This document shows positions 24,754 through 34,450 of a stretch of 60,654 bases of DNA, one piece after another; within the stretch, counting starts at the first letter, position 1, and each line of letters begins with the position of its first letter. Source of the DNA: Solirubrobacterales bacterium (lineage in GTDB: Bacteria > Actinomycetota > Thermoleophilia > Solirubrobacterales > Solirubrobacteraceae); assembly GCA_019240115.1 (NCBI GenBank), contig JAFAYV010000012.1, positions 1-60,654 on the forward strand, written 5' to 3'. The notes below the pieces were generated by a model. That model worked only from the letters and a program-made list of their open reading frames with translations, was not told where the DNA came from and ran no database searches. The position numbers and the translations under genes were made by a program.

Positions 24754-24873
24754 GACGACCAGAGCGTACAGCCCCGCCAATGCGGGCCCTGCACCTCCTA
24801 AACCCTCGCTCTTTGCGCGTGAACATCCTGTGACCGAGCCCGCGCCGTGCCAGTGGGGGTCGGGTCCACGTAA

Positions 24874-24886: not shown

Positions 24887-25708
24887 ATGTCGATCGACCG
24901 CAGCGTGACGCTGCCGGACGCCGCGGGCTCGGCCCAGCGCGCGCCGAGCCGGATCCGGTTGGCGGTGCTCGATCGCGATCCGGGCTTCATGCAGGTCCTC
25001 GCCAAGCGTCTGGACTCGCTCGGCTGCGAGTACCGGCCGCTGGCCGCGCCGGTGGGTCTCGAGGGACTGGTGACGATGCGCCTGAACGCGCTCGTCGTCG
25101 ACCTCGCGATCCTCGGTCCGAGCGGCTGGGGCTACCTCGAGCAGGTCTGTGCTCGGCTTCCCGGGATGGCCGTGATCGTCTGCACCGGTCCGTCGTCGGT
25201 CGCGCAGCGGGTGCGCGGCCTGCGCCTCGGCGCCGACGCCTGGGTGACCAAGCCGTGCCACGCCGAGGAGCTCATCTGCGTCATCGAGGCGGCGGTGCGG
25301 CGTCACCGCCGCGGCGAGATGCCCACGCTCGAGGCGACGGCGACGTTCGGCGAGATCACCGTGCGCCCCGACCTCCACCAGGCCTACGTCGGCCCGACGA
25401 GTCTTGAGCTCACCGCGCGCGAGTTCGAGATCCTGCACCTGCTGACCGGCGCCGACCGCGTGCTGCGGCGCGAGGAGATCTACGAGCGGGTGTGGGGCTA
25501 CGCGATGGCGCACGGCGATCGCTCGGTCGACGTGTTCGTGCGCAAGCTGCGCCAGAAGCTGCGCGCCGGTTCGCCGCAGTGGAGCTACATCCACACCCAT
25601 TTCGGCGTCGGCTACCGGTTCGCCCCCGAGCGCGAGGTCGACGCGCCGGAGCTCGACCTCGTCGAGCCGGCGCCGCTGCACATGCTGGATCCCGCGCTCG
25701 CCGGCTGA
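24887..25708 (+). CDS. PhoB-like response regulator with atypical receiver
   Basis: 273 residues. After about 20 variable residues comes a receiver domain (IRLAVLDRDPGFMQVLAKRL; Asp in LVVDLAILGPSGW; Lys in WVTKPCHAEEL) and an OmpR-type winged helix (TAREFEILHLLTGAD, VWGYAMAHGDRSVDVFVRKLRQKL, YIHTHFGVGYRF). The acidic pocket reads LDRD rather than the usual DD/DDE pair, so phosphorylation may be altered. Immediately upstream of a PhoB-like DNA-binding protein and pstSCAB-phoU, it probably controls phosphate uptake. No histidine kinase is adjacent. Its 3' end is duplicated in tandem (43 bp). Confidence 0.88.
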   Translation: MSIDRSVTLPDAAGSAQRAPSRIRLAVLDRDPGFMQVLAKRLDSLGCEYRPLAAPVGLEGLVTMRLNALVVDLAILGPSGWGYLEQVCARLPGMAVIVCTGPSSVAQRVRGLRLGADAWVTKPCHAEELICVIEAAVRRHRRGEMPTLEATATFGEITVRPDLHQAYVGPTSLELTAREFEILHLLTGADRVLRREEIYERVWGYAMAHGDRSVDVFVRKLRQKLRAGSPQWSYIHTHFGVGYRFAPEREVDAPELDLVEPAPLHMLDPALAG

Positions 25709-25751
25709 CCCGGCGCCGCTGCAGATGCTGGACCCCGCTCGCCGGCTGACC
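25667..25751 (+). repeat. 43-bp tandem duplication of the regulator gene's 3' end
   Basis: The block starting CCGGCGCCGCTGCA at 25667 recurs at 25710 with few differences and one deletion. The first copy encodes the last residues (PAPLHMLDPALAG) and the stop codon; the second lies downstream and is shifted by one frame. Same pattern as the 41-bp array after the hydrolase gene. Confidence 0.85.
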
Positions 25752-25759
25752 CGGCGCAC

Positions 25760-25803
25760 GTCACAGCTCGTACACATCTTCGTCACGAGTCGATAACGCG
25801 GTG
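25760..25803 (+). promoter_or_regulatory. Four tandem 11-bp PHO-box-like direct repeats
   Basis: GTCACAGCTCG, TACACATCTTC, GTCACGAGTCG and ATAACGCGGTG follow each other without gaps (25760-25803), each with an (A/C)AC core at positions 3-5 as in actinobacterial PHO boxes built of 11-bp units. They end 19 bases before the wHTH gene. Units two and four resemble units in the pstS upstream region. Confidence 0.5.
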
Positions 25804-25822
25804 GCGGGTCGTCGCGGCCAGC

Positions 25823-26194
25823 ATGGTGGCGATGACGACGGTCAGGCCGCGCACGGAGGTCCTCGAGGTGGGACCACTGCAGATTCTCCCCGAGGAGCAT
25901 CTCGCGCGTGCGGAGGGGCGCGCGCTCATGCTCTCGATCCGTGAGCTGCATCTGCTCACCGAGCTGGCCCGCCGCGCCGACCGCATCGTCGCCCGCGAGG
26001 AGCTGTTCGCGCTCGTGTGGGGGCGGCAGATGCGCGCCCGTGACCGGTCGGTCGACGTCTACGTGCGCAAGCTCCGGGTCAAGCTCGAGGTCGCGCTCCC
26101 GGGGTGGCGGTTCATCCACACCCACTTCGGCTTCGGCTACCGGCTCGCGGCCGAGCGTCAACCAGGGTCCAACACCGATTTCACATCTGGATAA
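25823..26194 (+). CDS. Stand-alone OmpR/PhoB-type DNA-binding protein (no receiver)
   Basis: 123 residues, only a winged helix: LSIRELHLLTELARRADRIV, FALVWGRQMRARDRSVDVYVRKLRVKL and WRFIHTHFGFGYRLAAER. It is clearly paralogous to the C-terminal half of the regulator just upstream (RSVDV-VRKLR-KL, IHTHFG-GYR shared). Lacking a receiver domain, it cannot be controlled by phosphorylation. Start ATG 25823 or 25832. It lies 59 bases before pstS and between two PHO-box-like arrays, so it may compete with or support the full-length regulator. Function is inferred only. Confidence 0.85.
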   Translation: MVAMTTVRPRTEVLEVGPLQILPEEHLARAEGRALMLSIRELHLLTELARRADRIVAREELFALVWGRQMRARDRSVDVYVRKLRVKLEVALPGWRFIHTHFGFGYRLAAERQPGSNTDFTSG

Positions 26195-26240
26195 CACGCG
26201 GCGAGATCCCGCACCCGAGACTCTGCCCCGTTCACAGGAC
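26169..26240 (+). promoter_or_regulatory. PHO-box-like repeats upstream of pstS
   Basis: Three gapless 11-mers CCAACACCGAT, TTCACATCTGG, ATAACACGCGG (26169-26201) share the ACA core with the array at 25760. A further GTTCACAGGAC (26230-26240), close to the Streptomyces PHO-box unit GTTCACC, sits next to the AAGGAG ribosome site (26241-26246) of pstS. The first repeats overlap the end of the wHTH gene. Confidence 0.5.
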
Positions 26241-26253
26241 AAGGAGATAACAC

Positions 26254-27384
26254 GTGCGTAGAAGTCGTATCACCGCGATCGCGACGATGCTCGTCGTCGC
26301 CGTTGCCGTCGCCGCCTGCGGCTCGAGCTCGAAGAGCTCGAGCAGCTCGAGCGGAGGCGGAGGCGCCGCGTCGTCGTCGAGCAGCTCCGGGGGCGGGCCG
26401 GCCACGATCAACGGCGCCGGCTCGACGCTGGCCGCGCCCATCTACCAGCAGTGGGGCTCGGTGCTGAAGTCCCAGGGCCTGACGGTCAACTTCAACCCGG
26501 TCGGATCGGGTGCCGGCGTCGCCGACCTGCAGACCAAGACCGTGCAGTTCGCGGGCTCGGACCCGGCGCTGAAGCCGACCGACAAGGCGGGCCTGAAGGG
26601 CGGCGCGCTGCAGTTCCCCGTCGCGTTCGGCGGCATCACGGTTTCCTACAACCTGTCCGGCGTCAAGAGCGGGCTCAAGCTCGACGGCCCGACGATCGCC
26701 GACATCTTCCTCGGCAAGATCAAGACGTGGAGCGACCCGGCGATCGCCAAGCTCAACCCGGGCATGAAGCTCCCGTCGACCGCGATCACGGTCGTGCACC
26801 GCTCGGACTCCTCGGGCACGACGAAGGGCTTCACCACGTTCCTGGAGGACTACAGCCCGCAGTGGAAGTCCCAGGTCGGCGCCGACAAGACGGTCAAATG
26901 GCCGACCGGCACCGGCGCGGCCAAGAACTCCGGCGTGGCTGCCGCGGTCAAGCAGACCCCGGGCGCGATCGGCTACGTCGAGCAGGCCTACGCGCTGCTG
27001 AACGGCTTCACCTACGCCGCGGTCAAGAACGCCCACGGCCAGTACGTGTTGCCGACGATCGCCAACACGTCGCTCGCCGCCCAGGGGATCAAGATCCCGG
27101 CCGACCTCGGCATCTCGACGATCAACGCCGGCGGCCCGGGCGCGTACCCGATCGTCTCCCAGACGTTCCTCGACGTCTACAAGGACCCGTGCAAGTCGGG
27201 TAACGCGAGCTCGTCGGTGGCCGGCGGACTGAAGAAGTTCCTCACCTACGCGTTCGGCGCCGGCCAGCAGACGCTCGGCAGCAGCGGGCAGCAGCTGCCC
27301 TACGCCCCGCTGCCGCCCTCGCTGGCGGCCAAGGACACGGCGCAGCTCGCCAAGATGACCTGCAACGGCAAGCCCGTCTCCTAG
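26254..27384 (+). CDS. pstS: Phosphate ABC transporter substrate-binding lipoprotein
   Basis: 376 residues. Signal peptide with lipobox AVAACGS (Cys22), then a Ser/Gly-rich tether and the periplasmic-binding domain: INGAGSTLAAPIYQQW, NFNPVGSGAGVADLQ, FAGSDPALKP, VVHRSDSSGTTKGFTTFL and TPGAIGYVEQAYA, all characteristic phosphate-contacting segments. Captures phosphate at the cell surface and delivers it to PstCA. GTG 26254 with AAGGAG 7 bases upstream. First gene of pstSCAB-phoU; the PHO-box-like repeats before it point to control by phosphate starvation. Confidence 0.97.
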   Translation: MRRSRITAIATMLVVAVAVAACGSSSKSSSSSSGGGGAASSSSSSGGGPATINGAGSTLAAPIYQQWGSVLKSQGLTVNFNPVGSGAGVADLQTKTVQFAGSDPALKPTDKAGLKGGALQFPVAFGGITVSYNLSGVKSGLKLDGPTIADIFLGKIKTWSDPAIAKLNPGMKLPSTAITVVHRSDSSGTTKGFTTFLEDYSPQWKSQVGADKTVKWPTGTGAAKNSGVAAAVKQTPGAIGYVEQAYALLNGFTYAAVKNAHGQYVLPTIANTSLAAQGIKIPADLGISTINAGGPGAYPIVSQTFLDVYKDPCKSGNASSSVAGGLKKFLTYAFGAGQQTLGSSGQQLPYAPLPPSLAAKDTAQLAKMTCNGKPVS

Positions 27385-27387
27385 CCG

Positions 27388-28410
27388 GTGGAGTCATCGG
27401 CCACGACGGTCTCCGGCGGCCGCTCCGCGCTGCGGCGGTCGCCGGCCAGCCGGCTGCCCGATCAGCTCCTGCGATGGGGGCTGACCGGGCTGGCCGGGCT
27501 GATCCTGCTGATCCTGCTGTACTTCTTCATCCGGCTCATCGGGGAGTCGGGGTCGACCTTCTCGAAGTTCGGGCTGAGCTTCGTCTTCGGCAACGACTGG
27601 GACACCGGGCACGAGATCTTCCACGGCTTCCCGCTCCTGTTCGGGACGCTGCTGACCTCGGTGATCGCCCTCATCCTCGGGGTGCCGGTGGCGATCGCCG
27701 CGGCGCTGTACCTGACCGAGCTGTGCCCGCGCCGGCTGCGGGGGCCGTTCAGCCTCTTCGTCGACCTGCTCGCGGCGGTCCCCTCGGTCGTCTACGGCCT
27801 GTGGGGCGTGTTCGTGCTCATCCCCAAGCTCCTCGGAGCCGAGAAGTGGTTCGCCTCGACCTTCTCGTTCATCCCGTTCGTCGGGGGCGGGACGCCGACC
27901 GGGCCCAACTACTTCATCGCCGGGCTGATCCTGGCGATCATGATCGTGCCGATCGTCTCGGCGATCGCCCGCGAGGTCATGGCGACCGTCCCGCCCGAGC
28001 ACAAGGAGGCGGCGCTGGCGCTCGGAGCGACCCGGTGGGAGATGATCCGCATGGCGGTGCTCCCCTACGCGCGCCCGGGGATCACCGGCGGCGCGATGCT
28101 CGGGCTCGGCCGCGCGCTCGGCGAGACGATCGCGGTCGTGCTCGTGATCGGCAACAGCGACTCGATCGGCTCGCACCTGTTCAACCAGGGCTACTCGCTC
28201 GCGGCGGTGATCGCCAACGAGTTCGGCGAGGCCGCCAATGACACGACGCACCGCTCGGCGCTGTTCGCCGCCGGCCTCGTCCTGTTCGTGCTGACCCTGC
28301 TCGTCAACATGGTCGCCCGGCGCTTCATCTCGCGTGGCCAGCGCGGCCGGCGGGGCACCGGGGGAACCGGGGTCACGGTGGCCACGGGACCCGCGGGAGG
28401 TGCGCAATGA
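27388..28410 (+). CDS. pstC: Phosphate ABC transporter permease PstC
   Basis: 340 residues with six predicted membrane helices; the cytoplasmic coupling loop [32 protein letters not shown] is the EAA motif of ABC permeases. The family-specific [29 protein letters not shown] and [16 protein letters not shown] segments identify PstC. GTG 27388 is 3 bases after pstS; its end overlaps pstA by 4 bases (ATGA). Confidence 0.96.
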
Positions 28411-29279
28411 GCCTCACCGCGTTCGCTCCGGTCAGCGCCGCGCGGCGGCGCAAGGACCGGATCATGCGCGGCGTCCTGCTGACGCTGACGCTCGTCGCGT
28501 TCGTGCCCCTGATCCTCATCGTCTACTACCTGCTGCACAAGGGCCTGACGGCCGTGACCGGCAGCGGGTTCTTCACCACCGACCCGACCGGCAGCTTCTT
28601 CGGCAACCAGGGCGGCGTGCGCTCGGCGATCCTCGGCACGCTCGAGATCGTCCTCATCGCCTCGGCGATCGCGATCCCGATCGGGATCGGCGTCGCCCTG
28701 TACCTGACCGAGTACGGCCGCGACAGCCGCTTCGCCGACGCGGTGCGCTACTTCGTCGACGTCATGACCGGCGTGCCGTCGATCGTGTTCGGACTGTTCG
28801 TCTACATCACCCTCGTGCTCGCGGGCGTCGGCGGGGCGTTCGCGGGCTGGAAGGGCTCGATCGCGCTCGCCCTGCTGATGCTGCCGATCGTCGTGCGGGC
28901 CGCCGAGGTCGTGCTTCTGCTCGTGCCCGCCGGGCTGCGCGAGGCGGCGCTGGCGCTGGGCGCGCCGCGCTGGCGGGTGATGCTCAGGGTCGTGCTGCCG
29001 ACCGCGTTGCCGGGGCTGGTCACCGGCTCGCTGCTGGCGATCGCGCGCGGCATGGGCGAGACCGCGCCGCTGCTGTTCACCGTCAGCGTCGCCTTCGGGG
29101 CCACTCTGGACCCGACCAAGCAGATGAACACCCTGCCGGTGCAGATCTACAACGACATCAGCTCGCCCAACCCGGTGCTCAACTCCCGCGCCTGGGGAGC
29201 GGCGCTGACGCTCGTCGCGATCGTCCTCATCCTCAACCTGCTCGCGCGACTGATCGCGCGAGGGAGCCGCATGTCATGA
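28407..29279 (+). CDS. pstA: Phosphate ABC transporter permease PstA
   Basis: 290 residues, six membrane helices. EAA loop [31 protein letters not shown] and [20 protein letters not shown] are the PstA hallmarks. ATG overlaps the pstC stop (ATGA). Forms the channel with PstC. The stop codon overlaps the first ATG of pstB. Confidence 0.96.
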
Positions 29280-30160
29280 TCCCACCAGAGACCGACGCCA
29301 CCGCCGACCACCAGAGAGCGAGCGACATGTCAACCGCCGAAGGTTCACCGGCCGAGCCGGCTCAGGAGGCGCCGAACCTCAAGGAGATGGGCGTCCGGGA
29401 AGGAGCCGGTCACGGCGTCCACGTCAAGGGGCTGCGCGCGTTCTACGGCGACAACGAGGCCGTCAAGGGCATCGACATCGAGTTTCCGGCCAACCAGGTG
29501 ACGGCGATCATCGGCCCCTCGGGCTGTGGCAAGTCGACGATGGTGCGCTGCATCAACCGGATGCACGAGGAGATCCCCGGCGCCCGCGCCGCGGGTTCGG
29601 TGACGATCGACGACCTCGACGTGTACGGCCCCGGGGTCGACGTGACCTCGGTGCGGCGCATGGTCGGGATGGTCTTCCAGAAGCCCAACCCGTTCCCGAC
29701 GATGTCGATCTTCGACAACGTCGCGGCCGGTCTGAAGCTGACCGGGACCCGGGCCGACAACCTGCGCGAGCACGTACACCGGTCGCTGCGCGCCGTGGGC
29801 CTCTGGGGCGAGGTCAAGAACCGCCTGAACTCGCCCGGCCACGGGCTCTCCGGCGGCCAGCAGCAGCGGCTGTGCATCGCGCGCACGGTCGCCGTCGAGC
29901 CCGAGGTGATCCTCATGGACGAGCCCTGCTCGGCCCTGGATCCGATCGCCACCCTGAGGGTCGAGGAGCTGATCGACGAGCTGAAGGCGCGCTACACGAT
30001 CGTCATCGTCACCCACAACATGCAGCAGGCCGCCCGCGTCGCCGATTCGACGGTGTTCATGCTCGACGGCGAGGTCGTCGAGCACGCCCCCACCGACAGC
30101 GTGTTCACCAATCCCCGCGACGAGCGCACCGAGCGCTACGTCACCGGCAAGTTCGGCTGA
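29276..30160 (+). CDS. pstB: Phosphate ABC transporter ATP-binding protein PstB
   Basis: 294 residues. Walker [11 protein letters not shown]-loop [18 protein letters not shown], signature [14 protein letters not shown], Walker [14 protein letters not shown] and H-loop [17 protein letters not shown] after the Q-loop is specific to PstB. ATG 29276 overlaps the pstA stop; ATG 29327 (17 codons later) is an alternative and leaves a more usual N-terminus. The N-terminal 45 residues are longer than in most PstB and rich in Glu/Ala/Pro. Powers phosphate import with PstC and PstA. Confidence 0.96.
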
Positions 30161-30164
30161 GCCG

Positions 30165-30863
30165 GTGCAGGAGACCCGCCACCAGTTCCGCGAGGACCTC
30201 AAGGAGCTCGAGCGCCAGGTGCTCGGCGGTCTCGACCTCGTCATCTCCCAGCTCGACCGCGCCCAGGAGTCGGTCAGCTACCAGGACGTCGAGCTCGCCG
30301 CGCTGGTGGTCGCCGACGACGACCGCATCGACGGCCGCTACCTCGAGGTCCACCAGGGGATCCTGTCGCTGCTCGCCCGCCAGGCGCCGGTCGCCGGCGA
30401 CCTGCGGATCGTGGCCGCGTTGCTGCACGTCATCCGCTGCATCGAGCGGATGGGCGACCAGTGCGTCAACATCGCCAAGCTCGTCCCGCTCTCGGGCTAC
30501 GAGGCGCCGAAGGACAAGGAGATCCTCGATGCGATCGAGCGGATGGGCCAGCTGGCGCGCTCGCAGGTCGCCCAGGCCAAGGAGGCGCTGCGCACCCGCA
30601 ACATCCAGATGGCCCAGGACCTCGTCCACCAGGACGCCGAGATCAACCGCCTGAACCGGGCGATCTTCAAGCGCGCGGTCGAGATCGGCGACGACATGGA
30701 CATGCGCGAGTGGGGGATGTTCATGATCCTCGTCGCCCGGTGCCTGGAACGGATCGGAGACAACACCGTCGACATCGCCGAGCAGGTGGTGTTCGTCGTC
30801 ACCGGCCTGTTCCGCGAGCTCGCGGGCGCCTCGACGACCGCCGAGACCGCCCCATCGAGCTGA
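30165..30863 (+). CDS. phoU: Phosphate signalling regulator PhoU
   Basis: 232 residues, two repeated three-helix bundles, each with an E/D-X3-D metal motif: RCIERMGDQCVNIAKL and RCLERIGDNTVDIAEQ. Links PstB activity to the phosphate-sensing kinase and restrains uptake when phosphate is sufficient. GTG 30165 is 4 bases after pstB, so it is the last core gene of the operon. Its stop codon overlaps a possible CTG start of the next frame. Confidence 0.95.
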   Translation: MQETRHQFREDLKELERQVLGGLDLVISQLDRAQESVSYQDVELAALVVADDDRIDGRYLEVHQGILSLLARQAPVAGDLRIVAALLHVIRCIERMGDQCVNIAKLVPLSGYEAPKDKEILDAIERMGQLARSQVAQAKEALRTRNIQMAQDLVHQDAEINRLNRAIFKRAVEIGDDMDMREWGMFMILVARCLERIGDNTVDIAEQVVFVVTGLFRELAGASTTAETAPSS

Positions 30864-32301: not shown

Positions 32302-33750
32302 TCAGCCGTACGGCAGCGCCTCGGTCTCGGCGCCGGTGTCGGTGCCGGTGTCGGTGCCGGTGTCGGTGTCGGTGCCGGTGCCGGTGGCGTCGTGCAGGTC
32401 GGCGATCGTCGGCAGGGCGAGCGTGAAGACCGCGCCGCCGTCGGGGGCGGTGTGCACCGATGCGGTGCCGCCGTGCTGCTCGGTCACCTGGCGCACGATC
32501 GCCAGACCGAGCCCGCTGCCGTGGCGCCCCCGCGAGCCGGGGCCGCGGAAGAAGCGATCGAACACGTACGGCTGGTCCTCGAGCGGGATGCCGGGACCGT
32601 GGTCGCGCACCTCGACGCCGCGCTCGTGCACCCGGAGGGTCACGACGCCGCCCGGCGGCGAGTGCCGGCTCGCGTTGTCGAGCAGGTTGTTGATCGCGCG
32701 CGCCAGGCGCTCGGGCACCCCGTCGACGAGCACCGGCGCAAGCTCGGCCGCGAAGACGATCCCCGGCGCGTTGCGCCGGGCGCGGGCGAGCGACTCCTCG
32801 GCGACCCGGTCCAGGCGGACCTCGTCGGGCTCGGGGCCCGGCTGGTCGCCGCGGGCGAGCTCGATGAGGTCGTTGACGAGCGCGCTCAGCTCCTCGGACT
32901 GCTCGACGACGTCGGCGAGCAGCCGACGACGATCCTCGGGATCGAGCTCGGCGCCGTCGAGCAGGACCTCGATGTTCGTGCGCAGGCTCGTCACCGGGGT
33001 GCGCAGCTCGTGCGAGGCGTCGGCGACGAGCTGGCGCTGGGCGCGCGCCGATTCGTCGAGCGCGACGCGCGAGCTCTCGAGGCGGTCGAGCATCGCGTTG
33101 AACCGCCGCGCCAGCTGGCCGACCTCGTCGTCGGCGTGGACGCGCAGCCGCGCGGTCAGGTCCTCTGTCTCCTCGATGTGGCGCGCCGCGCCCGCGACCT
33201 CGCCGAGCGGAGCGAGCACCCGGCGCGAGGCGACCCGGCCGAGGATCGCGGCGAGCGCGATCCCGCCGACGAACAGCAGCAGCAGCACGAGGCGGAGGCT
33301 CGCCAGCACCGCGTCGGTGCCGTTCAGGGGGCGGGCGAGCTCGAGCGCGGCGGTCTGGCCGTCCTCGGTCGTCACCCCGAAGGTCAACATGCGCAGATGG
33401 TCGTCCCCGACGCGCACGTCGGTCAGCTCCGACCCGTTGCCGGTGGCGGCGATGTGCTGGATGTCGGGGGTGATCGGCAGCGGGACGTTGCCCTGCTGGC
33501 GCAAGGGCTCGCCGTCGGCGAGCGCGATCTGCCAGTACGGCGCGGGGCCGCCCGCGCTCCCCGGGATGCCCGGGATCGCGGGGTACACCCGGCCGGTCTG
33601 CTGGACCGCCGTGCGCTGCGCGCGCAGCGAGTCGTCGACCGACCCCCGCAGCTGGTCGCGCACCACCAGGTAGCTGACCACGACCGCGATCAGGACCGCG
33701 ACCGCGACCGAGGAGGCGGCGACGATCGTCAGGCGCTTGCGGAGCGACAC
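32302..33750 (-). CDS. Sensor histidine kinase
   Basis: 482 residues from GTG 33750. Helix 1 about 8-30, extracytoplasmic domain about 31-150, helix 2 about 152-172, HAMP, HisKA with phospho-acceptor His247 (LVADASHELRTPVTSL), ATPase with NLLDNASRHSPPGG, VRDHGPGIP and GSGLGLAIVRQV. It resembles MprB-type kinases of actinobacteria. The start overlaps the regulator gene's end region closely (stop at 33764), so kinase follows regulator in one operon. The C-terminal tail is a Thr-Gly/Thr-Asp repeat made by a hexamer array. Confidence 0.94.
   Translation of the reverse strand: MSLRKRLTIVAASSVAVAVLIAVVVSYLVVRDQLRGSVDDSLRAQRTAVQQTGRVYPAIPGIPGSAGGPAPYWQIALADGEPLRQQGNVPLPITPDIQHIAATGNGSELTDVRVGDDHLRMLTFGVTTEDGQTAALELARPLNGTDAVLASLRLVLLLLFVGGIALAAILGRVASRRVLAPLGEVAGAARHIEETEDLTARLRVHADDEVGQLARRFNAMLDRLESSRVALDESARAQRQLVADASHELRTPVTSLRTNIEVLLDGAELDPEDRRRLLADVVEQSEELSALVNDLIELARGDQPGPEPDEVRLDRVAEESLARARRNAPGIVFAAELAPVLVDGVPERLARAINNLLDNASRHSPPGGVVTLRVHERGVEVRDHGPGIPLEDQPYVFDRFFRGPGSRGRHGSGLGLAIVRQVTEQHGGTASVHTAPDGGAVFTLALPTIADLHDATGTGTDTDTGTDTGTDTGAETEALPYG
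32335..32388 (-). repeat. Hexanucleotide array in the kinase C-terminal tail, 9 units
   Basis: Nine 6-bp units: GGTGTC (four), GGTGCC (four) and GGTGGC (one). Read on the minus strand they give alternating Asp-Thr and Gly-Thr codons, a flexible tail of about 18 residues outside the ATPase domain. Length variation would not shift the frame. Confidence 0.9.
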
Positions 33751-33763
33751 GCGGGGACGGCCA

Positions 33764-34450
33764 TTAGTCGCGCAGGACGTAGCCGACGCCGCGCACGGTG
33801 TGGAGCAGGCGCGGCTCGCCCCCGGCCTCGGTCTTGCGTCGCAGGTAGCCCATGTACACGCCGAGCGCGTTGGACGTGGGCCCGAAGTCATAGCCCCAGA
33901 CGTTCTCGAAGATCGTCGCGCGGGTCAGGACCTGGCGCGGATGTCGCAGGAACAGCTCGAGCAGCAGGAACTCGGTCCGCGACAGCTCGATCAGCCGATT
34001 GCCCCGGCGCACCTCGTGTGCCACCGGATCGAGCACGAGGTCGGCGTACTCCAGCACCTCGCCCTCGCCCGGCCCGTCGCCCGCCCGGCGCAGCAGCGCC
34101 CGCAGGCGCGCCTGCAGCTCGCGCAGCGCGAACGGCTTGACCAGGTAGTCGTCGGCGCCGACGTCCAGCCCCTGCACCCGATCGTCGATCGCGTCGCGCG
34201 CGGTCAGCATCAGCACCGGCGTCCGGTCGCCCGCCTTGCGCATCCGCCGGCACACCTCGAGCCCGTCGAGCCGCGGCATCAGGATGTCGAGGATGACCGC
34301 GTCCGCCGGGTCGGTGGCCAGCGCATCAAGCGCCGCCTCGCCGTCGGCGGCGAGGCTCACCTCGTAGTTGTCGAGCTTCAGCGCGCGCTCGAGCGCGCGC
34401 CGGACGGCGGGCTCGTCGTCGACGACCAGCACTCGTGCCATGACGGTCAT
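33764..34450 (-). CDS. OmpR-type response regulator (MprA-like)
   Basis: 228 residues. Receiver with DDE (11-13), Asp55 ([12 protein letters not shown]), Lys in [10 protein letters not shown]; winged helix with [33 protein letters not shown] and [11 protein letters not shown]. The phrase [25 protein letters not shown] is typical of MprA regulators, which respond to envelope stress. Start ATG 34450 or ATG 34441 (MARVLVV). It heads an operon with the kinase 14 bases downstream. Confidence 0.94.

What the first reader, a model, noticed from the sequence alone, without database searches (positions are those of the whole stretch)
24887..26194. PhoB-like pair: one with an unusual receiver, one with none, and no kinase
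Seen: adjacent paralogous winged helices, the first with LDRD in place of the acidic triad, the second lacking the receiver. No histidine kinase lies next to them, unlike usual phoR-phoB. Inference: a phosphate switch that works by competition or by protein level instead of phosphorylation, perhaps through PhoU.
Basis: partly seen in the sequence, partly recalled or inferred. Interest (0 to 1): 0.6.

Follow-up and report, generated by a model that had tools for sequence, protein, structure and literature searches.

The report
Phosphate regulator that lost its kinase
In this order of soil bacteria the textbook kinase-driven phosphate switch seems to have lost its kinase, leaving a regulator with a broken phosphorylation site and a receiver-less twin, next to the phosphate-sensing gene phoU, at ordinary phosphate control sites.

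Summary
The gene pair is real. The claim about its receiver is overstated. RR1 (24887-25708) keeps four of the five catalytic residues (D29, D72, T100, K122); only the metal-binding second acid is changed (R30). SA (25823-26194) is a complete stand-alone winged helix.

RR1 is the order's PhoB counterpart. In another family of the class (f6), its canonical sister lies convergent to a PhoR-like kinase beside pst-phoU. Full-length PhoR was not found in 6 genomes of the window's order, and no kinase of RR1's own lies beside it. Across 108 aligned RR1 receivers, 105 lack at least one catalytic residue (0 of 10 outgroup). One genus (5 of 5) has Asn at the phosphorylation site. Meanwhile new residues became fixed (Trp at K-3, His at K+3).

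Pho boxes (TCAC every 11 bp) precede SA and pstS on the coding strand and RR1 on the opposite strand. In this genome, two other boxes precede a PHO4 transporter and a PF04185 phosphoesterase.

Best reading: a Pho regulon run without canonical phosphotransfer, with PhoU the likeliest source of the signal and SA a Pho-induced amplifier or competitor. Kinase loss and a remodelled receiver are well supported; PhoU as direct partner and SA's role are inference. New variant of a known kind (atypical response regulators).

The parts
24887..25708 (+). RR1: PhoB-like response regulator, 273 aa; receiver with D29, R30 (altered metal-binding acid), D72, T100, K122; C-terminal winged helix
25823..26194 (+). 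SA: stand-alone OmpR/PhoB-type winged helix, 123 aa, no receiver; 47% identical to the winged helix of RR1
24808..24833 (-). Pho-box-like array before RR1, on the strand opposite to RR1 (TCAC N7 TCAC)
25761..25797 (+). Pho-box-like array before SA: TCAC, ACAC, TCAC, TAAC at 11-bp steps
   Evidence: 25761-25786; fourth unit read
26170..26195 (+). Pho-box-like array before pstS, overlapping the stop codon of SA (CAAC, TCAC, TAAC at 11-bp steps)
26254..27384 (+). pstS, phosphate-binding protein
   Evidence: named by sequence and operon context, homologues
27388..28410 (+). pstC
28407..29279 (+). pstA
29327..30160 (+). pstB (start read as)
30165..30863 (+). phoU, the only PhoU-like match in this genome at E<=1e-5
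32302..33747 (-). nearest histidine kinase (HAMP, HisKA, HATPase_c); not part of the pair, has its own regulator
33764..34438 (-). canonical response regulator beside that kinase

Best explanation
RR1 is the PhoB counterpart of this bacterial order and controls its Pho regulon, but it has lost its kinase PhoR and no longer works by canonical Asp phosphotransfer. Shown by comparison: a canonical PhoR-type kinase and PhoB-like regulator sit at pst-phoU in another family of the class; in the window's order PhoR is missing, the regulator stays at pst-phoU, the receiver has lost catalytic residues and fixed new ones, and 11-bp Pho-box arrays are kept. Inferred: the fold is held in, or close to, the dimerising state without a phosphoryl group; the phosphate signal reaches it directly from PhoU (Pi-loaded PhoU inhibiting, Pi-free PhoU releasing) or from another partner of the pseudo-receiver; RR1 activates SA-pst and, from a reversed box, restrains its own gene. 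SA is a duplicate of the RR1 winged helix without the silencing receiver, made when the Pho box fires; it most likely amplifies the response at the same boxes, less likely competes with RR1.
For: Synteny: RR1 beside pst and/or phoU across the order; phoU within 5 kb in 33 of 35 full-flank loci, pst in 26, a kinase in 1 of 35, and that kinase has its own regulator. Ancestry: RR1 and the canonical f5/f6 regulators form one clade (96*) apart from 16 other own OmpR-type regulators; RR1 itself 100* on a long stem. f6 kinases score best with PnpS and PhoR models over nearly the whole protein, below the curated cut-offs. PhoR loss: the f6 PhoR finds full-length matches in G296 and G089 (464 and 433 bits) but at most 117.5 bits, kinase core only, in 6 genomes of the order. 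Kinase pairing: G037 3 of 3, G011 9 of 9. Receiver: 105 of 108 lack at least one catalytic residue against 0 of 10 outgroup; D to N in 6 rows; K-3 Trp and K+3 His in 108 of 108, K+2 Cys in 97 of 108 where the outgroup has Tyr/Phe, Ser/Gly and Phe. Box: TCAC at 11-bp spacing is the top repeat in an unguided count, 132 against 1.1 in shuffles; also before pst in genomes without SA and in f6. Own-genome sites: 11 with up to 2 mismatches, 0 for the reversed pattern, 3 of them at this locus, one before a PHO4 transporter, one before a PF04185 phosphoesterase. PhoU: one match per genome in 6 of 6 searched. Literature: removing the PhoB receiver leaves constitutive DNA binding (PMC4415409, passage); PhoU with Pi acts on the kinase SenX3 without Pst (PMC12301784, abstract and discussion).
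Against: No binding, expression or phosphorylation data exist here. D72 is still present in 102 of 108 and K122 in 108 of 108, so some chemistry or charge role may remain. Three receivers (L118, L249, L251, family f3) keep all five catalytic residues. Unpaired HisKA kinases exist in own G000 (2 of 18), G015 (2 of 12), G053 (2 of 11) and G035 (11 of 24). One 98%-complete genome of the same family, G159, has no RR1 at all. No PhoU-RR1 contact was tested. That RR1 or SA bind the boxes is inferred from position and family. In SA the Gly of the PhoB polymerase-contact loop is kept in only 39 of 58 and one recognition-helix Arg in 26 of 58, which leaves room for a competitor rather than an activator.
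Confidence: 0.55

Rival explanations
1. RR1 is a sluggish but ordinary response regulator: an unlinked or non-cognate kinase (for instance the HK at 32302-33747, or one of the unpaired kinases) or a small phosphodonor phosphorylates D72 despite the altered metal site.
For: D72 in 102 of 108, T/S in 104 of 108, K in 108 of 108. The HK/RR pair beyond phoU recurs near phoU in some genomes of the window's genus: RR 81-90% identical in L157, L160, L167, L172, and RR 49% in L251. The review PMC12632262 (section 20) says changes at DD, T or K do not always abolish phosphorylation. Two kinases of the own genome are unpaired.
Against: One-contig genomes G037 and G011 have no unpaired HisKA kinase; a whole genus (5 of 5 genomes) has Asn at the acceptor site; the HK/RR pair is absent from most loci and has its own canonical regulator.
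Confidence: 0.2
2. The receiver has become a sensor of something other than PhoU: a small ligand, redox state through Cys near the pocket (T-1 and K+2), or Ser/Thr phosphorylation.
For: New near-invariant residues around the pocket: Cys at K+2 in 97 of 108, Cys at T-1 in 93 of 96, His at K+3 in 108 of 108. VKOR- and DsbA-like genes lie upstream in the window's genus. Redox, ligand and Ser/Thr control of atypical regulators are known (PMC12632262 section 20). Relatives in family f5 lie beside Ser/Thr-kinase-like ORFs.
Against: Cys at T-1 is also common in canonical outgroup receivers (8 of 10); VKOR/DsbA linkage is confined to the window's genus; no ligand was tested.
Confidence: 0.15
3. Protein level alone: RR1 is constitutively active and self-limiting, and SA competes for the same boxes, so that the ratio of the two sets output.
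For: All RR1 boxes found lie on the strand opposite to RR1 (34 of 80 RR1 genes with a box, none on the same strand); SA is preceded by a same-strand box in 44 of 57; SA has the fold of a whole winged helix.
Against: No route for the phosphate signal is offered, yet phoU stays linked where pst is not. Genomes with RR1 but no SA keep boxes before pst, so competition cannot be the core mechanism of the order.
Confidence: 0.12

Closest known systems
PhoR-PhoB / SenX3-RegX3 phosphate two-component systems
   Same: regulator beside pst-phoU; PhoB-type winged helix; 11-bp direct-repeat Pho boxes of the TTCAC kind known from Streptomyces (GTTCACC, PMC4415409)
   Different: no PhoR in the order, altered catalytic site, reversed box before the regulator's own gene, receiver-less paralogue
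Atypical response regulators with pseudo-receivers (GlnR, ChxR, HP1043, RitR, JadR1; reviewed in PMC12632262)
   Same: orphan OmpR/PhoB-type regulator lacking one of the five catalytic residues; intact receiver fold
   Different: most keep the phosphoacceptor Asp; tied to Pho control and PhoU; ancestral kinase-bearing state still visible in another family of the class
Stand-alone OmpR-type winged-helix regulators without a receiver (NnaR is cited as lacking a receiver in PMC12632262)
   Same: DNA-binding domain of a response regulator without receiver
   Different: SA is a bare winged helix of 123 aa, apparently a duplicate of its neighbour, in the pst operon

Membership tests
PhoB (canonical phosphate response regulator) | score above the curated cut-off of a PhoB model | tested here: not met
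   TIGR02154 88.3 bits against 296.2; NF053854 88.8 against 270
PhoB (canonical phosphate response regulator) | complete catalytic site (two acids, D, T/S, K) | tested here: not met
   R30 at the second acid; 105 of 108 relatives lack at least one
PhoB (canonical phosphate response regulator) | cognate PhoR kinase | tested here: not met
   none adjacent; no full-length match to f6 PhoR in 6 genomes of the order
PhoB (canonical phosphate response regulator) | linkage to pst-phoU and Pho-box arrays at target genes | tested here: met
Pseudo-receiver / atypical response regulator (PMC12632262) | recognised as receiver but lacking key catalytic residues | tested here: met
   Response_reg 35.1 bits; R30; receiver fold in the AlphaFold2 model
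Pseudo-receiver / atypical response regulator (PMC12632262) | activity without Asp phosphorylation | not testable with these tools
   needs protein work; D to N in 6 rows, including 5 of 5 genomes of one genus, speaks for it
Aspartate-less receivers (ALR) | no phosphoacceptor Asp | tested here: not met
   D72 present in the window and in 102 of 108; only genus g13 and G029 would qualify
Stand-alone OmpR/PhoB-type DNA-binding domain (SA) | winged helix without receiver | tested here: met
   Trans_reg_C alone; model pLDDT 89.6 with the N-terminal sheet
Stand-alone OmpR/PhoB-type DNA-binding domain (SA) | binds DNA | not testable with these tools
   recognition helix DRSVDVYVRKLR close to that of RR1 DRSVDVFVRKLR

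The most novel reading that the evidence does not exclude
A whole bacterial order has turned the PhoR-PhoB two-component switch into a kinase-free Pho switch: PhoU carries the phosphate signal straight to a pseudo-receiver PhoB, a receiver-less PhoB twin in the pst operon amplifies it, and living lineages still show the steps (PhoR with complete site; no PhoR with complete site; metal acid lost; phosphoacceptor lost).
Probability: 0.35. Interest if true: 0.8.

Novelty: new variant of a known kind. Interest (0 to 1): 0.6.

Why it matters
The Pho regulon is a textbook case of kinase-driven control, and how bacterial pseudo-receivers are switched is called a mystery in a 2025 review (PMC12632262, abstract). 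Here is a pseudo-receiver with a known physiological signal, a named candidate partner (PhoU), defined DNA sites, cultured hosts (Conexibacter, Solirubrobacter, Svornostia) and relatives that still have the kinase. That makes the question directly testable.

Tried and rejected
Rejected: that the whole acidic motif is replaced (only one catalytic acid is). Rejected: that RR1 is a one-off or decaying gene: 59 of 61 genomes have it. Rejected: drift of a useless receiver, because Trp at K-3 and His at K+3 are invariant in 108 of 108.

Weak or led nowhere: a winged-helix tree in which several rows of the own genome were cut in the wrong frame; replaced for the full-length regulators. In one search SA lies outside RR1 but the order of RR1, SA and outgroup is unresolved; 19 of 20 sampled SA rows form one group (support 92), one groups elsewhere. 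A comparison of PhoU between the order and f6 gave 27 order-specific columns, but only 3 f6 rows and no clear patch. Identity of the window to f6 falls for PhoU (33%) and the RR1 receiver (32%) but not for PstB (56%): suggestive only. Paper searches for a kinase-less PhoB, PhoU contacting PhoB, or Pho control in these bacteria listed nothing that describes it in the held open-access library; I read listings only for these.

Counts that need care: of the 108 receivers two rows (WIN and L069) are the same protein. Kinase pairing (regulator within about 3 kb) was read by eye from positions: G037 3 of 3, G011 9 of 9, G015 10 of 12, G053 9 of 11, G035 13 of 24, own 16 of 18. Against the reading: G159 lacks RR1; G020 and G021 (69% and 75% complete) show none. 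The full-flank count uses 35 of 80 loci; the two without phoU or pst within 5 kb are L207 (none seen) and L225 (present, further away). One search scored only up to 10 candidates per genome.

Full report
What is there. RR1 (24887-25708) is an OmpR/PhoB-type regulator with a receiver and a winged helix; SA (25823-26194) is a winged helix alone. They stand before pstS-pstC-pstA-pstB-phoU (26254-30863), with ppk, sixA- and ppx-like genes on the other side. AlphaFold2 gives RR1 an intact (beta-alpha)5 receiver and winged helix (mean pLDDT 79.8, receiver blocks above 85), and SA a whole winged helix with its N-terminal sheet (89.6). Foldseek returns ordinary full-length relatives of RR1 such as KdpE, PrrA, MtrA and the atypical regulator RitR.

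The receiver. By the scheme of PMC12632262 (passages and sections 4, 18-20 seen) a receiver has two metal-binding acids, D, T and K. The window has D29, R30, D72, T100, K122: only the second acid, which touches the metal, is lost. In 108 aligned receivers of the order this position is R 43, T 20, S 18, A 9, D 8, N 5, G 4, V 1. Overall 105 of 108 lack at least one catalytic residue, against 0 of 10 outgroup receivers. The acceptor is Asn in 6: all five genomes of genus g13 and G029, at least two separate changes on the tree. At the same time K-3 is Trp and K+3 His in 108 of 108, and K+2 Cys in 97 of 108, where the outgroup has Tyr/Phe, Ser/Gly and Phe. This is remodelling, not decay.

Family and origin. 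RR1 was found in 59 of 61 relatives, 39 of 39 of good quality. In a sample of 246 genomes of the phylum only 16 matched at E<=1e-38, all of the same class; one same-family genome, G159, lacks it even when every candidate is scored. The named loci are mostly Solirubrobacterales and Thermoleophilaceae, with Conexibacter, Solirubrobacter and Svornostia among them. The nearest outgroup regulators, families f5 and f6, are canonical. In f6 (L138, L140, L142) the regulator lies convergent to a kinase that follows pst-phoU, and that kinase scores best with PnpS and PhoR models, below their cut-offs. RR1, f5 and f6 form one clade (96*) apart from the 16 other OmpR-type regulators of the window's genome; RR1 is a 100* clade on a stem of 1.5 changes per column.

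The kinase is gone. The f6 PhoR finds full-length matches in G296 and G089 (464 and 433 bits). In six genomes of the order the best is 117.5 bits, and the match never begins before residue 111 of 420, so it is the shared kinase core. In the one-contig genomes G037 and G011 all HisKA kinases (3 of 3, 9 of 9) sit beside a regulator of their own; unpaired ones remain in G015 2 of 12, G053 2 of 11, G035 11 of 24, own 2 of 18. Near RR1, among 35 of 80 loci with 5 kb on both sides, a kinase lies within 5 kb in 1, phoU in 33, pst in 26. Some loci hold RR1, SA and phoU without pst, and in the genus of the window pst genes can be of another type (pstC 46% in L100 against 73% in L099) while RR1 and phoU stay alike. 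So phoU, not pst, is the constant partner.

The DNA sites. An unguided count of repeated 4-mers before RR1, SA and pstS (174 upstream stretches) put TCAC at 11-bp spacing first, 132 against 1.1 in shuffles. This is the Pho-box pattern: 11-nucleotide direct repeats, GTTCACC in Streptomyces (PMC4415409, passages). Boxes lie on the coding strand before SA (44 of 57) and pstS (20 of 36), and on the opposite strand before RR1; sorted by neighbour, 34 of 80 RR1 genes have an opposite-strand box and none a same-strand one, including 16 of 34 that directly follow phoU. Genomes without SA and the f6 genomes have such boxes too. In the window's genome one pattern with up to 2 mismatches gave 11 sites, the reversed pattern 0: three at this locus, one before a PHO4 phosphate transporter and one before a PF04185 phosphoesterase; the other six have no clear phosphate gene.

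How it most likely works. Shown by comparison: a PhoB counterpart without PhoR, with a damaged phosphotransfer site, at Pho boxes. Inferred: RR1 acts without canonical phosphorylation; the signal comes from PhoU, which in mycobacteria reads Pi and acts on the kinase SenX3 without Pst (PMC12301784, abstract and discussion); the reversed box restrains RR1; SA, free of the receiver that silences PhoB (PMC4415409 citing Ellison and McCleary), is made with the regulon. SA keeps Trp 58 of 58 and Asp 54 of 58 of the PhoB polymerase-contact residues (listed in PMC3348028), but Gly only 39 of 58, and one recognition-helix Arg in 26 of 58. Amplifier is therefore only somewhat likelier than competitor.

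Novelty. Atypical, kinase-less regulators are a known kind; a Pho regulon run by one, with the kinase-bearing state preserved in another family and a receiver-less twin, was not found in the searches made. A Lys at the same acid makes CheY constitutively active (PMC4671073, passages), though the same change failed in EpsW, so the Arg here is at most a hint.

Noticed in passing
L134, L135, L137, L139, L141 (family f5 loci of the same class): Canonical relatives of RR1 without a histidine kinase beside them lie next to ORFs that read like Ser/Thr protein kinases (GRYRLxxxIGxGGMATVWRA), by eye.
   Followed up: no
window:32302-34438, L157, L160, L167, L172, L251: A separate kinase/regulator pair recurs beyond phoU in part of the window's genus; a 49% identical regulator also lies there in L251 of another family.
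   Followed up: partly
L099 against L100: Within one genus the pst genes are of two types while RR1, SA and phoU remain alike, as if pst had been replaced.
   Followed up: no
L190, L191, L213, L215: Records titled Bifidobacterium breve or Chlamydiae bacterium carry this Solirubrobacterales-type locus; the labels look wrong.
   Followed up: no
upstream stretches: AGCT repeated at 12-bp spacing is also far above shuffles (48 against 0.7); unexplained.
   Followed up: no
window:30461-31639: An ORF after phoU holds near-identical tandem protein repeats (RVALARSAVGARATATLA), seen.
   Followed up: no
window:21156-22444: VKOR-like and DsbA-like genes precede RR1 in the window's genus, beside a regulator with conserved Cys near its pocket.
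   Followed up: no
G159: A 98%-complete genome of the same family has no RR1; what controls its pst genes is unknown.
   Followed up: partly
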